From positions 1 to 64,000 of the forward strand of contig JAIQGL010000002.1 in the NCBI GenBank assembly GCA_020072585.1: DNA of 64,000 nt. The letters are read 5' to 3'. Shown here piece by piece: positions 1-52,720 of the stretch (the stretch's first letter is position 1; each line of letters starts with the position of its first letter). The translations under genes and the position numbers were made by a program. The DNA comes from Terriglobia bacterium. Its GTDB lineage: Bacteria > Acidobacteriota > Terriglobia > Terriglobales > Acidobacteriaceae. Under the pieces are notes generated by a model. The model made no database searches, was not told the DNA's origin, and saw only the letters and a program-made list of their open reading frames with translations.

Positions 1-170
1 AGGTCTGACTAATCTCCGTGTCGAGGTCCTACTGCCTCACTGCACGAGCCCAGCCTGCAACCTGTCTGCTCCAGATTCCTGTTCCGGAGCATATCGCCTC
101 AGAACTTGCTCCTTATTCATGCCATCTCCGTGGTGAAAATTCCCGCACCTGGCAATTCCGGCGATCTCCA

Positions 171-2010: not shown

Positions 2011-2379
2011 TGAAGGGTAGAGAGCGCCTGCAAGGCGCGGCATTCTTGAGCCCAGGCCGTAAGGCCTGGGTAAGCATGAACAAAGATTGAGCCCCGCGGG
2101 GCGGCACAAAAGGCCGGTTTGGTTCGTTTGAAGAAAGGACGCGCTCTTCAATTCTGCCAGCCACATTGACACCGCAAATCCCTGTCATCCTGACCGACCG
2201 CGCACGACCCTGAACCCTGAGCTTGCGAAGGGAATGGGGAAGTGCGTGGAAGTGGAAGGACCCCGAGGATGATTACATTACGAGTGCCGCATCAGGTAGT
2301 TCTCTTGACAATGTGTGATTTTGGCCGAGCCATGGTTCGTATCAGGGTACGGGCTTCAGGGAGCACAGAAGGAGTAAAT
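2011..2379. other. Intergenic stretch with dispersed repeat
   Basis: No gene seen. It contains copy 1 of the TGTCATCC...CAGGGAGTT repeat at 2183-2305. It also contains inverted short words around 2034-2070, where 'aaggcg' and 'cgccttg'-like segments near 'cccaggccgtaaggcctggg' form a hairpin (CCCAGGCC/GGCCTGGG). Confidence 0.5.
2183..2305 (+). repeat. Repeat A, copy 1
   Basis: It begins TGTCATCCTGACCGACC, contains CCTGAGCTTGCGAAGGG and GGAAGGACCCCG, and ends GCCGCATCAGGTAGTTCTCT. It aligns over its length with 19318-19443. Shorter relatives lie at 41251-41345, 52238-52350 and 52704-52816. Confidence 0.75.
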
Positions 2380-3670: not shown

Positions 3671-3864
3671 GAAAGACGCAGACAAAGATTTTTCCTTACG
3701 CCGTAGGCTTGCGCGCAGCGAAGCGGAGTGCACACAAAAGATGTGCCGCCCCTGCGGCGCTCGCAATCTTAAAACCCAACTTCCCAGGACTCACGTCCTA
3801 GGGCTCAATAATTCCGCCCTGCGGGCTGCGATACATAAAGCCTTAGAGCTTATCGATTTTTCGC

Positions 3865-3898
3865 TTGACATTCGTCTATCTATCAATAACACTGTTAT
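3865..3898 (+). promoter_or_regulatory. Likely promoter and operator of HTH gene
   Basis: A consensus -35 box TTGACA lies at 3865-3870. The -10 box is not clear (AATAAC at 3885 is a weak candidate). ATAACACTGTTAT at 3886-3898 is a perfect 13-base palindrome ending 3 bases before the ATG and could be an autoregulatory operator. The second HTH gene (start 52043) also has TTGACA upstream, with ACAATA 17 bases further on. Confidence 0.45.
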
Positions 3899-3901
3899 CG
3901 A

Positions 3902-4243
3902 ATGAAAACGTATTCGACGCGCCAAGCCTCCAAGATGCTTGGGCTTTCTTGGGTCGCCCTGGCGCATTACATCAAGGTAGGAAAAGTGCCTCCGCCGCAG
4001 ATATTCAATATCGGCGGTAAGAATATCCACGCCTGGACTGAGGCCGAAATTGAACACGTCCGCAAGCTCCTGCCTAAGATCGCCAACGGCAGGAAAACCC
4101 GTTACAAAAAAAGCAATCAGCAATCAGCAGTCAGTACTGAGCAATCAGCAAAAACAAAGACACCGGCGAAGACGCCGGTGCCAAACAAATCTCGTAACCC
4201 TAAGAAGAAGCAACCATCGCCCAAAGCTAACGCTAAGAGCTAA
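3902..4243 (+). CDS. MerR/excisionase-like HTH protein (module 1)
   Basis: A 113-residue protein. Residues 1-70 form a winged helix-turn-helix of the MerR/excisionase type (STRQASKMLGLSWVALAHYI, then KVPPPQI). It is closely similar to the 90-residue protein at 52043-51771, including the shared block LLPKIANGRKTRY. The tail is Lys/Pro-rich, and residues around 75-85 are encoded by a low-complexity AGCAATCAGC repeat, so part of the tail looks like a repeat insertion. It is probably a DNA-binding regulator of the genes that follow. The downstream leader is shared with the second module. Confidence 0.8.
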   Translation: MKTYSTRQASKMLGLSWVALAHYIKVGKVPPPQIFNIGGKNIHAWTEAEIEHVRKLLPKIANGRKTRYKKSNQQSAVSTEQSAKTKTPAKTPVPNKSRNPKKKQPSPKANAKS

Positions 4244-4259
4244 TGGCTAACGGCTGAAC

Positions 4260-4334
4260 CTTAACGGGCAGCGCCCGGTGCTACCAACACCGAACGCGCC
4301 CTAACCAAAACCGCCTACGGAGAGGCAATTATGG
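4260..4334 (+). promoter_or_regulatory. Conserved leader of HTH module 1
   Basis: This untranslated segment aligns base for base with 51721-51648 on the other strand. Shared words include GCGCCCGRTGCTA, ACACCGAACGCGCCCTAACC and the GGAG-AGGCAA ribosome-binding region before an ATGGC start. GGGC/GCCC and CGGTG/CACCG (4276-4280 with 4288-4292) can form small hairpins in this copy only. It could be an operator or an RNA control element. Confidence 0.7.
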
Positions 4335-4435
4335 CTACCACTGAAGCTACACGTCCCGCCTTTTGGGTGCAACCCGCAGCAAGCACTCGCGCCGCAGCCC
4401 ACTTCACTCAATCCTTAAAGCAGGTGCGCCTATGA
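4331..4435 (+). CDS. 34-residue ORF coupled to downstream gene
   Basis: The ORF starts at ATG 4331 after GGAGAGG, with 6 bases of spacing, and encodes MATTEATRPAFWVQPAAS and so on, ending at TGA 4435. Its stop overlaps the next start as ATGA (4432-4435), so the two should be translated in coupled fashion. The start sits exactly where the 108-residue gene of module 2 (start 51651) begins relative to the shared leader. This is strong positional support that ribosomes initiate here. It may be a leader peptide or the shortened equivalent of the module 2 protein. I do not recognise the peptide. Confidence 0.6.
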   Translation: MATTEATRPAFWVQPAASTRAAAHFTQSLKQVRL

Positions 4436-4773
4436 CCTCCGCGCGCCGCACCGGAAAATCCAGACGCAGAAAGCCTGCCCCATTTGGCAAGCTGCCTTTG
4501 TCCGTCACCAACCGCGACGGGAAAACCACCATCCGCCAGCTTGCTGACCGGCGTATCATCCGGCTGGGCGAGGTCCGAGGCAAGACCGTGGCTTACGTGG
4601 AGCTGTATACCTCCAAGCAGGACAGCCACTCTCTGAACATCCGATTCACTGACAAGACGCGTCTGGCTCTGGCCATCTCACCGGGCTTTACCATCAAGGC
4701 TCAGTATTACAAGGTAGAGGGCTTGGGTGATCCGCAGGTGCTCAAGCGCTGGCCGGAGATCAAAAGCGAATAA
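4432..4773 (+). CDS. Basic protein of unknown function (HTH module 1)
   Basis: A 113-residue protein starting at ATG 4432, which overlaps the stop of the 34-residue ORF (ATGA). A more upstream in-frame start at 4363 is less likely because no ribosome binding site precedes it. The N-terminus is strongly basic (SARRTGKSRRRKP). The rest is beta-rich with VTNRDGKTTIRQL, VAYVELYTSKQDSHSLNIRF and KAQYYKVEGLGD, ending ILKRWPEIKSE-like. The family is not recognised. A DNA- or RNA-binding role is possible from the basic N-terminus alone. Confidence 0.6.
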   Translation: MTSARRTGKSRRRKPAPFGKLPLSVTNRDGKTTIRQLADRRIIRLGEVRGKTVAYVELYTSKQDSHSLNIRFTDKTRLALAISPGFTIKAQYYKVEGLGDPQVLKRWPEIKSE

Positions 4774-20843: not shown

Positions 20844-21146
20844 CTATTTCCGTCGTTGCGTTGGCAATGGCGTTTTGAGTCTCTTTTCAAGTGCAATGCG
20901 GACTTTACCGAATTGTGCCCAATCGTCGTTTTCAGCCGAGTCTAGCTGGTTTAACAGCAGGGTATTGATTTCAAGCTGTACTTCTTGGGTAAGTCCAAGC
21001 ATGTCCCTGAGATCACGAGTGTTAATGATGTCGGTTTGGCCCAGTTCCTCCAGCCTTTGAACAATGAAATGAAACGAGCGATTCAGCAGGAACATGCGGC
21101 GGTAAATATTTAGCCTCTCACCGCTGGTGAAATTGACAGCAGCCAT
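20844..21146 (-). CDS. Small helical hypothetical protein
   Basis: A 100-residue protein starting at ATG 21146 with GAGAGGCGA upstream. Mostly helical by eye (RRMFLLNRSFHFIVQRLEEL, DLRDMLGLTQEVQLEINTLL), with a basic end (KRLKTPLPTQRRK). It converges with the PIN gene, 68 bases apart, and shares its AT-richer composition. It is not a recognised antitoxin, but it could belong to the same acquired segment. The family is unknown. Confidence 0.6.
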   Translation of the reverse strand: MAAVNFTSGERLNIYRRMFLLNRSFHFIVQRLEELGQTDIINTRDLRDMLGLTQEVQLEINTLLLNQLDSAENDDWAQFGKVRIALEKRLKTPLPTQRRK

Positions 21147-51324: not shown

Positions 51325-51651
51325 TTAGCTTGCACGTTCCGTTTCAAGGCAATGTTGCTGGAAGTGGCGGGCGTTGGCGGTTTCGCGCTCCGCCAGAACG
51401 GCCATGGCTTCACGGTTGGCCTGCGCCCGAAGCCGGGAAAGCAGGTTGTAGATGCCATGGAGGCTTTCCGAGGAGGAGAAGCAGTTGACCTTCTTTAGCT
51501 CTTCAAGGCCGTGCAGGGCCTGTTCAAAGCCATTGTTCATTTCCGCGAGGCAGCGGTAGGCGTGGGCCCTTACCGGCAGGGGTTGTGTGGGTTGAGACTG
51601 AGGTTGATGTTGCGCAAGGTGGATGGAGCGTTTAGCTTTGTTTACAGCCAT
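51325..51651 (-). CDS. Hypothetical protein of HTH module 2
   Basis: A 108-residue basic, helical protein. ATG 51651 follows GGAGG and sits at the same position relative to the shared leader as the 34-residue ORF of module 1. The first 35 residues are Gln/Pro-rich (AQHQPQSQPTQPLP), followed by two long helices (GFEQALHGLEELKKVN, LLSRLRAQANREAMAVLAERET). I do not recognise the family. It is downstream of the HTH gene at 52043 and is probably controlled by it. Confidence 0.65.
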   Translation of the reverse strand: MAVNKAKRSIHLAQHQPQSQPTQPLPVRAHAYRCLAEMNNGFEQALHGLEELKKVNCFSSSESLHGIYNLLSRLRAQANREAMAVLAERETANARHFQQHCLETERAS

Positions 51652-51721
51652 GGTTGCCTCCTTCAAGGCGACTACGGTTAGGGCGCGTTCGGTGTTCTAG
51701 CATCGGGCGCGTCCGTTAGTT
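51648..51721 (-). promoter_or_regulatory. Conserved leader of HTH module 2
   Basis: This leader aligns with 4260-4334 on the opposite strand over about 70 bases, with ACACCGAACGCGCCCTAACC unchanged. The first copy has small hairpins that this copy lacks, which favours a protein-binding site over a conserved RNA fold. Confidence 0.7.
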
Positions 51722-51770
51722 GAGCAATTAGCAATTGGCAAATAGCAACTGGCCAAATGGTTGTGGTTAG

Positions 51771-52043
51771 TTACTTCTTCTTTGGTTTGCGAGGCACGGG
51801 CGATTTCGTCTGTGCCTTTTCTTGTTCACGGAGTTTGGAGTAACGGGTTTTCCTGCCGTTGGCGATCTTGGGCAGGAGCTGGCGGACGTTTTCGATTTCC
51901 GCGTCCGTCCACATGTGGACGACGCGGCGGCCCACGGTGACGATTTCAGGCGCGGGGACTTTTCCTATCGCGATGTAGTTGGCAAGGGTGTCATAGTTAA
52001 TGCCCAGCCTCTTTGCCGCTTCGCGAGTGGAATGCTTGATCAT
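51771..52043 (-). CDS. MerR/excisionase-like HTH protein (module 2)
   Basis: A 90-residue protein with the same DNA-binding domain as 3902-4243: STREAAKRLGINYDTLANYI, KVPAPEIVTVG, AEIENVRQLLPKIANGRKTRY. It lacks the repeat-derived tail of that paralogue. TTGACA with ACAATA 17 bases downstream lies before the start (about 52080-52050), a good promoter match. Its genes point opposite to module 1. Confidence 0.8.
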   Translation of the reverse strand: MIKHSTREAAKRLGINYDTLANYIAIGKVPAPEIVTVGRRVVHMWTDAEIENVRQLLPKIANGRKTRYSKLREQEKAQTKSPVPRKPKKK

Positions 52044-52099
52044 TTACCCATATTGTCGGAAATATATGGATGGTGTCAATGAAATTGATGAACGATTGT

Positions 52100-52381: not shown

Positions 52382-52720
52382 ATGACCGCAAGAGAGCACG
52401 AATATTGGGTCTACATCATGGCGAGCCTCTCCGGCACGCTGTACACGGGCATTACAGGAGTTCTCTTCACCCGCGTGATGCAGCACAAAGCAGGTGAGAT
52501 CGAGGGCTTCACCCGTCAATACAAATGCAACCGCCTGGTTTATTACGAGAGTTTTGAGGACGTAAGGATGGCCATTGCGCGGGAAAAGCAGATCAAGCGC
52601 TGGCGGCGCTCGAAGAAGATTGCCTTGATTGAGAAGATGAATCCGCGCTGGGCAGACTTGGCCGAACATTGGGGACAGAAAATGCTGTTTCGCGGACAGA
52701 GCATGGGGAAAACTCCCTGA
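52382..52720 (+). CDS. GIY-YIG nuclease-domain protein
   Basis: A 112-residue single-domain protein with the GIY-YIG fold: HEYWVYIMASLSGTLYTGIT at the N-terminus, an HK and Arg pair, then ESFEDVRMAIAREKQIKRW with the Glu expected for metal binding. GIY-YIG enzymes cut DNA at single strands with one metal ion. Free-standing copies of this length, related to YhbQ, often have no known role. The ORF lies precisely between two inverted repeat A copies, starting 31 bases after the left arm. The last 15 codons run into the right arm, so the C-terminus is encoded by repeat DNA. Confidence 0.8.
   Translation: MTAREHEYWVYIMASLSGTLYTGITGVLFTRVMQHKAGEIEGFTRQYKCNRLVYYESFEDVRMAIAREKQIKRWRRSKKIALIEKMNPRWADLAEHWGQKMLFRGQSMGKTP

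What the first reader, a model, noticed from the sequence alone, without database searches (positions are those of the whole stretch)
3902..4773. Two paralogous HTH modules in opposite orientation share a near-identical leader
The HTH genes at 3902-4243 and 52043-51771 are clearly paralogous (LLPKIANGRKTRY shared). Each is followed by an AGCTAA/TTGCTA low-complexity tract, then a 70-base leader that is almost identical (4260-4334 versus 51721-51648) up to the ribosome binding site and start codon. The proteins downstream differ entirely. A conserved regulator and leader with variable cargo suggests a modular element that swaps its output gene.
Basis: partly seen in the sequence, partly recalled or inferred. 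Interest (0 to 1): 0.72.

Follow-up and report, generated by a model that had tools for sequence, protein, structure and literature searches.

The report
Antisense-RNA gene cassettes in fifty-odd copies
The shared "leader" of the two window genes looks like a small antisense-RNA gene lying backwards over the start of each protein gene, part of a cassette that this soil bacterium carries more than fifty times with exchanged protein genes and that elsewhere in its phylum often sits before DNA-recombinase genes.

Summary
The own genome (genus Ca. Angelobacter, by database matches) has 40 leader matches; 38 of 40 lie just behind the HTH gene. My reading: the leader is the complement of a ~75-nt antisense RNA gene of the SymR / plasmid-R1162 kind. 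Support: (1) Rfam symR matches its antisense strand and R1162 its sense strand, full length but below the gathering scores; the 33 R1162 and 9 symR hits listed for the genome lie at loci with the same two cargo families. (2) A sigma70-like promoter lies backwards inside the first 42 nt of the cargo ORF, at 7 nt from the start-codon block in 64 of 77 copies; silent codon positions are fixed for it. (3) The antisense strand folds better than the sense strand in 77 of 77, with compensatory changes. Cargo is helical family A or beta family B (19: 20), scattered over the HTH tree. HTH promoters carry individual dyads. Elsewhere in the phylum the element often precedes recombinases. At least 15 own-genome copies lack the HTH. 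There is no transcript or bench evidence.

The parts
3902..4243 (+). copy 1: HTH regulator gene (MerR/excisionase-like HTH with the nearly invariant tail LLPKIANGRKTRY)
   Evidence: Pfam MerR E 0.0058, below the curated cut-off
3865..3901 (+). copy 1: promoter of the HTH gene (TTGACA at 3865-3870) with the dyad TCAATAACACTGTTATCGA at 3883-3901
4266..4301 (+). copy 1: long hairpin P1 of the leader (on the antisense strand it would be the last hairpin of the RNA)
4313..4326 (+). copy 1: second hairpin, GCCT/AGGC, pairing the Shine-Dalgarno region
4259..4336 (-). copy 1: predicted antisense RNA, about 75 nt, start near 4336, complementary to leader, SD and start codon
4344..4372 (-). copy 1: predicted antisense promoter inside the ORF (-10 TAGCTT 4344-4349; -35 TTGCAC 4367-4372; 17-base spacer)
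4331..4435 (+). copy 1: 34-codon ORF that starts at the leader's ATG and carries the antisense promoter
4432..4773 (+). copy 1: cargo family B gene (113 aa, beta domain), overlapping the short ORF at ATGA
51771..52043 (-). copy 2: HTH regulator gene
52048..52079 (-). copy 2: promoter of the HTH gene (TTGACA at 52074-52079) with dyad CCATATATTTCCGACAATATGG (52048-52069)
   Evidence: this dyad is centred at -15.5, not near -10 as is usual for the stronger ones
51646..51723 (+). copy 2: predicted antisense RNA over the leader and start codon
51610..51638 (+). copy 2: predicted antisense promoter inside the cargo ORF (-35 TTGCGC 51610-51615; -10 TAGCTT 51633-51638)
51325..51651 (-). copy 2: cargo family A gene (108 aa, helical hairpin)
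   Evidence: E 8e-20 to family A

Best explanation
Each locus is an expression cassette built round a cis-encoded antisense RNA gene. Inferred working: the sense mRNA starts from its own promoter (in the HTH-coupled copies a TTGACA-type promoter just before the HTH gene; in most stand-alone copies apparently directly before the leader) and runs through the leader into the cargo gene. From the opposite strand a ~75-nt RNA starts at the complement of the cargo start codon (AGCCAT). Its promoter lies in the first 42 nt of the cargo ORF, which explains the shared protein start MA(V/T)xxxKRSxxxLAQ. This RNA folds into two stable hairpins, covers leader, Shine-Dalgarno site and start codon, and would block translation, as SymR does for symE. 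The HTH protein most likely represses its own promoter at the dyad over the -10 region; recognition helix and dyad seem to have diverged together, so copies should be mutually insulated. Regulator and cargo are exchanged round the leader. In other Acidobacteriota the same valve often sits before serine or tyrosine recombinases or ArdC, genes of mobile elements. Shown by computation: copy number, HTH adjacency, two cargo families, antisense promoter signature and silent-site constraint, antisense-biased folding, compensatory changes, Rfam resemblance, dyads in about half the copies. Inferred: transcription, repression, HTH binding, function of A and B.
For: Antisense promoter: in 77 copies mean score 4.97 against 1.17 for 462 control windows (p 6e-31), -10 end exactly 7 nt before AGCCAT in 64 of 77, TANNNT at that place in 70 of 77; sense T at the third position of codon 6 in 71 of 77 against 16.6% of 6956 downstream codons (p 3e-48), Gln codon 14 CAA:CAG 56:2 against 143:175 (p 3e-15); TANNNT also in 12 of 13 stand-alone copies. 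Fold: antisense MFE mean -42.1 against -28.2 kcal/mol for sense, lower in 77 of 77; 231 control stretches -21.9 and -19.3; odd pairs in the three upper P1 pairs are A.C in sense 17 times and G.U once, that is mostly G.U in antisense; over all 12 pairs of 25 sequences A.C 15, G.U 4. Covariation: 8 of 12 P1 pairs with changes on both sides, 0 of 500 shuffles; antisense alignment 9 of 14; SD hairpin 0 of 500 permutations. Rfam: L054 antisense symR 51.2 bits, sense R1162 50.4 bits; own genome 33 R1162 and 9 symR hits, at loci with A or B. symR promoter inside the symE ORF: PMC1891008, passages. HTH: dyad 0 of 1000 permutations; recognition helix against operator r 0.21, 0 of 2000, unchanged after removing other columns. 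Exchange. Recombinases.
Against: No transcript data. All Rfam matches are below the gathering score (own-genome best 58.5 against 61 for symR, 41.5 against 55 for R1162), only 150 of 840 and 150 of 966 first-look candidates were scored, and at the same loose E<=1 the two models also ring in 7 and 4 of 14 control genomes, E. coli among them. The R1162 model matches the mRNA strand, not the antisense strand, and no literature on R1162 was read. HTH-coupled copies lack a clear T-run after P1 (mean longest 2.8; stand-alone 3.8), so the antisense 3' end is unproven. 13 of 77 copies do not put the best-scoring promoter at exactly 7 nt. The SD-hairpin excess is small (mean 4.47 against 4.16). The dyad is not evident in all 39 copies: 18 score at least 5, 11 at least 6; W2's best dyad is off-centre. 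Operator similarity also follows other variable HTH columns (r 0.20) and HTH similarity follows the upstream control stretch weakly (r 0.09, p 0.03). The HTH tree has 6 well-supported forks of 36. Cargo A and B have no known function. In 8 of 20 further loci no recombinase was found.
Confidence: 0.8

Rival explanations
1. The leader is a sense-strand RNA control element (riboswitch- or antitermination-like) to which the HTH protein's conserved basic tail binds; the antisense promoter signature is incidental.
For: The HTH tail LLPKIANGRKTRY is nearly invariant while its DNA-contact positions vary; the SD hairpin is conserved; R1162's model matches the sense strand.
Against: The leader occurs with no HTH gene (at least 15 own-genome copies) and behind unrelated regulators. 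The antisense strand folds better in 77 of 77 and odd pairs favour it. Silent codon positions are fixed for an antisense promoter.
Confidence: 0.1
2. One reading: the HTH protein binds the leader DNA or RNA and the pair is the module.
For: 38 of 40 leader matches in the own genome have the HTH gene next to them.
Against: Stand-alone copies and copies behind RHH or zinc-ribbon-like genes; HTH promoters carry individual dyads that track the recognition helix although the leaders are nearly the same.
Confidence: 0.08
3. The near-identity of leaders is only the trace of recent duplication and gene conversion of a two-gene operon, with no regulatory role.
For: Homology between copies rarely runs past the operon's edges; 40 HTH copies in the own genome against 0-12 in eight congeners.
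Against: Compensatory changes in the hairpins across families of the phylum, silent-site constraint and recurrence in 33 of 396 phylum genomes.
Confidence: 0.04

Closest known systems
SymE-SymR type I toxin-antitoxin locus of E. coli (Rfam RF01809; PMC1891008, passages read)
   Same: Antisense RNA over the 5' end of the target mRNA; its promoter is embedded in the target ORF; full-length but sub-threshold Rfam matches (own-genome best 58.5 bits, gathering 61; L054 51.2).
   Different: Target is not SymE by Pfam; dozens of copies; cargo exchanged (A, B, recombinases, ArdC); an HTH or RHH gene in front, where symE has a LexA site.
R1162-like plasmid antisense RNA (Rfam RF00043)
   Same: Its model fits the leader end to end, down to CUAACC, the SD hairpin and AUGGCU.
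   Different: The match is on the mRNA strand of our loci and below the gathering score; chromosomal, multi-copy. Its role in R1162 is recalled, not read.
PtaRNA1, plasmid-transferred antisense RNA (Rfam RF01811)
   Same: Weak full-length antisense match at one locus, L054 (25.4 bits, gathering 47); spread on mobile elements (recalled).
   Different: Score far below the cut-off; the original paper was not found.
IS10 RNA-OUT control of transposase (recalled, no call)
   Same: Short hairpin antisense RNA limiting translation of a recombinase gene.
   Different: No sequence comparison made; here the same RNA type serves unrelated recombinase families and non-recombinase cargo.
Excisionase / MerR-type small HTH regulators (PHROG 66; Pfam MerR and HTH_17; PADLOC mad1)
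   Same: Weak profile matches.
   Different: Below the Pfam cut-offs; nearly invariant basic tail and highly variable contact residues within one genome.

Membership tests
SymE-SymR (RF01809) | Score over the Rfam gathering threshold (61 bits) | tested here: not met
   Own-genome best 58.5 bits, 0 over the cut-off, 150 of 840 candidates scored; L054 51.2.
SymE-SymR (RF01809) | Antisense promoter embedded in the target ORF | tested here: met
   By sequence only: 64 of 77 at 7 nt; silent-site constraint; symR itself per PMC1891008 (passages).
SymE-SymR (RF01809) | Target protein is SymE (AbrB-like) | tested here: not met
   No Pfam match over a cut-off for W1's B, W2's A, 12 aligned A proteins, L205 (B), L215 (A), L047 (B).
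SymE-SymR (RF01809) | LexA/SOS control of the sense promoter | not tested
   Not searched for; a regulator gene with its own dyad is found in front of the HTH-coupled copies instead.
R1162-like plasmid antisense RNA (RF00043) | Score over the gathering threshold (55 bits) | tested here: not met
   Own-genome best 41.5, 150 of 966 candidates scored; L054 50.4.
Type I toxin-antitoxin systems | Antisense RNA that represses a toxin whose unchecked expression harms the cell | not testable with these tools
   Antisense gene predicted; toxicity of A and B needs an experiment.
Pfam MerR / HTH_17 | Curated cut-off reached by the two window HTH proteins | tested here: not met
   25.1 against 28.2 and 21.5 against 27 bits at best.
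Mobile-element recombinase operons | Recombinase gene downstream of the element | tested here: inconclusive
   Outside the genus at many loci; own-genome flanks were not searched for recombinases.

The most novel reading that the evidence does not exclude
A mobile-element antisense valve has become a self-multiplying, fully modular cassette in Ca. Angelobacter: over fifty copies, each insulated twice from its sisters, by a private repressor-dyad pair in DNA and by a private loop in the antisense hairpin (34 distinct loops among 38 own-genome copies read), with the leader as the joint at which regulators and cargos are exchanged; cargo A and B would be toxin-like or anti-element proteins held silent. 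SymR, R1162 RNA, PtaRNA1 and this element would be one superfamily of portable translational valves.
Probability: 0.3. Interest if true: 0.86.

Novelty: new variant of a known kind. Interest (0 to 1): 0.72.

Why it matters
It would extend SymR-type antisense control to Acidobacteriota and show one portable antisense valve attached to many unrelated genes, including recombinases of two unrelated families. A 2025 abstract (PMC12390103, seen in the search listing) says type I systems had been found only in Proteobacteria, Firmicutes and Tenericutes, and goes on to Cyanobacteria. My two searches with Acidobacteria as a term held 0 papers; the listings (15 of 36 shown; 7 of 7) name no Acidobacteria in a title. 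The 39 aligned HTH-promoter pairs of one genome are also a natural data set on how DNA-binding specificity diverges after duplication.

Tried and rejected

Limits of the counts: genome searches with RNA models over 40 genomes score only 12 candidates per genome, so 33 of 396 and 13 of 396 are lower bounds, and both include the own genome. A or B labels rest on profile hits anywhere in the fetched locus; several copies (L030, L037, L038, L044) have broken or shortened cargo frames. The stand-alone loci L212 and L213 lie near contig ends with only about 400 bases upstream. The 77 copies are those that one search's pattern or a second pattern caught: 38 own-genome, the rest congeners and distant; L037, L038, L039, L047, L099, L102, L104, L105, L132 and L202 among others are not in it. 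One search also listed some cargo-internal false rows, dropped by length, and repeated rows. Many of the 77 are related, so p-values overstate independence. The 25 sequences were chosen by me for diversity and the structure was drawn by me. One search read 67 leaders and missed two. The recombinase profiles were built from 5 and 7 of my own loci.

Full report
1. What was checked. The two HTH genes and the two leaders are at the stated places. In a search of the own genome (G000, 6.9 Mb, 74 contigs) the 96-base leader query gave 40 matches and the HTH protein 40. I fetched up to about 3 kb on each side of each (the window held two). 38 of the 40 leader matches lie behind an HTH gene on the same strand; L036 and L043 do not. 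HTH copy number is 40 in the own genome and 12, 6, 3, 2, 1, 1, 0, 0 in eight congeners; 14 of 61 genomes searched, the own one included, have a match. The genus is described in PMC9723581 (passages seen).

2. The regulator. The alignment of 39 HTH proteins shows strong variation at the recognition-helix positions 16-18 and in the wing 33-42, against a nearly invariant LLPKIANGRKTRY. 38 of 39 copies have TTGA at the -35 place before the HTH gene; L013 does not. An inverted repeat tends to be centred about 10 nt before the start codon: pairing each left arm with another copy's right arm never reached the observed mean in 1000 permutations; 18 of 39 copies score at least 5, where permutations average 2.5. 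Recognition-helix similarity follows operator similarity (r 0.21, 0 of 2000 permutations; the same after removing other columns), more than it follows an upstream control stretch (r 0.09, p 0.03); other variable HTH columns follow the operator too (r 0.20), less so its core (r 0.13 against 0.20). Self-repression at a private operator is the simplest reading; it is inferred.

3. The cargo. Two families: A, a helical hairpin (model pLDDT 80), and B, with a beta domain (pLDDT 68 overall, mostly 81-90 from residue 51 on). No Pfam match over a cut-off was found for the A and B proteins scanned, none in NCBIfam for 7 B proteins. Among 39 HTH-coupled own-genome copies 19 carry A and 20 carry B. On the HTH tree the label needs 11 changes (shuffled mean 13.2, 77 of 500 as low) and at least 4 are forced. 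Exchange is visible at the leader: L119 and L122 (both G007) share 93.5% identity from the leader to the cargo end but have different HTH genes; L042 and L012 share HTH and leader at 84.6% but carry B and A.

4. The leader. In sense orientation it has a long hairpin P1, a conserved C-T-R-A-C-C, a second hairpin that pairs the Shine-Dalgarno site, then ATGGC. P1 keeps pairing through compensatory changes across the phylum: 8 of 12 pairs, 0 of 500 shuffles, slid controls at most 2. L054 has a P1 that pairs throughout, by eye. The second hairpin exists in several alternative sequences; 52 of 57 copies have at least 4 pairs, where permuted arms give 41 on average.

5. Why an antisense RNA. Rfam scans with a relaxed threshold gave full-length matches to symR on the antisense strand and to the R1162 RNA on the sense strand at many leaders. 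In the own genome the R1162 model has 33 hits at E<=1 (150 of 966 candidates scored): 25 are leader matches, two are L047 and L048, six are new stand-alone loci. The symR model has 9 hits (150 of 840 scored): L047 and eight stand-alone loci. Together these are 13 new stand-alone loci; profiles find A or B in all 13 and the HTH in none. All scores are below the gathering thresholds, and at E<=1 the models also ring in 7 and 4 of 14 control genomes, so I do not file the loci in these Rfam families; the weight lies on the tests below.

6. Three tests of the antisense reading. Promoter: 77 copies against 462 control windows, p 6e-31; 64 of 77 have the -10 end exactly 7 nt from AGCCAT, where the symR match also begins. 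Silent sites: T at the third position of codon 6 in 71 of 77 (background 16.6%), and CAA rather than CAG at glutamine 14 in 56 of 58 (background 143 of 318); these are what TANNNT and TTG need on the other strand. Folding: the antisense strand is the more stable in 77 of 77 (controls differ by 2.7 kcal/mol on average, the leaders by 13.9); imperfect pairs in the three upper P1 pairs are A.C in sense 17 times and G.U once. In E. coli the symR promoter is embedded in the symE ORF (PMC1891008, passages). Many of the 77 copies are related, so the p-values are too small; the direction is uniform.

7. Elsewhere in the phylum. A model of the sense leader hit 13 of 396 genomes, a model of the antisense RNA 33 of 396. 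Downstream genes, by Pfam: serine recombinase (L133, L189, L191, L193), tyrosine integrase (L129, L130, L196, L199, L201, L202), ArdC (L194); by reading only, recombinases also at L194, L200 and L203. Among the 17 loci, L188, L190, L195, L197 and L198 showed no recombinase directly behind the element, and L192 and L204 carry A. Of 20 further loci, two of them in congener G007, 12 have a recombinase match behind the element (6 serine, 6 tyrosine) and 8 none. Six named loci (L054, L056, L057, L060, L061, L062) carry A, B or both. L113 and L123 have the HTH directly before a large serine recombinase with no leader (Pfam for L113). The upstream gene varies too: RHH (L196, L199, L201, L203) or zinc-ribbon-like (L193 weakly by Pfam; L194 and L200 by eye only).

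8. Reading. A cis-encoded antisense RNA valve, perhaps ancestrally on mobile elements, carries exchangeable regulators in front and exchangeable genes behind. In Ca. Angelobacter it has multiplied to at least 55 copies: 40 HTH-coupled and 15 stand-alone (13 new loci plus L036 and L043), besides the degenerate window copy at 20844-21146. What A and B do is unknown; toxin-like cargo is the obvious guess from SymE but has no evidence here.

9. Novelty. SymR-type control is known; what my searches (open-access library only, listings partly shown) did not turn up is its occurrence in Acidobacteriota, its multi-copy modular form, and its use before recombinases. Hence 'new variant of a known kind'.

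Noticed in passing
window 2023-2070 (-) and 3783-3827 (+): Acido-Lenti-1 RNA (RF01687): one match over the gathering score (44 bits) and a weaker one (28.9 bits), the latter just upstream of copy 1's promoter.
   Followed up: no
window 1-134: The first ~134 bases recur at 99-100% in nine other contigs of the genome, mostly at contig ends, and at 87-88% in congeners: probably the end of an insertion element that breaks the assembly.
   Followed up: no
window 52382-52720 (+): A GIY-YIG nuclease gene (Pfam E 4.2e-14) lies upstream of copy 2 in opposite orientation; the stretch has matches in congeners.
   Followed up: partly
leader P1 loop, e.g. L017 and L028: The bases that close the P1 loop are mostly C..A or T..G, each the reverse complement of the other (36 and 24 of 67), as if the loop were often inverted; the similar copies L017 and L028 have nearly reverse-complementary loops.
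   Followed up: partly
L113 (G004), L123 (G007): A relative of the HTH sits directly before a 502-aa large serine recombinase without any leader, hinting that the HTH may have begun as a recombinase partner.
   Followed up: partly
L194, L200, L262: The antisense element precedes an ArdC-like antirestriction gene followed by a serine recombinase (L200 by reading).
   Followed up: partly
W1 and L010, L019, L021-L023, L025, L029, L039: In these copies the shared protein start is a separate short ORF before the A or B gene, possibly a translation-coupling leader peptide.
   Followed up: no
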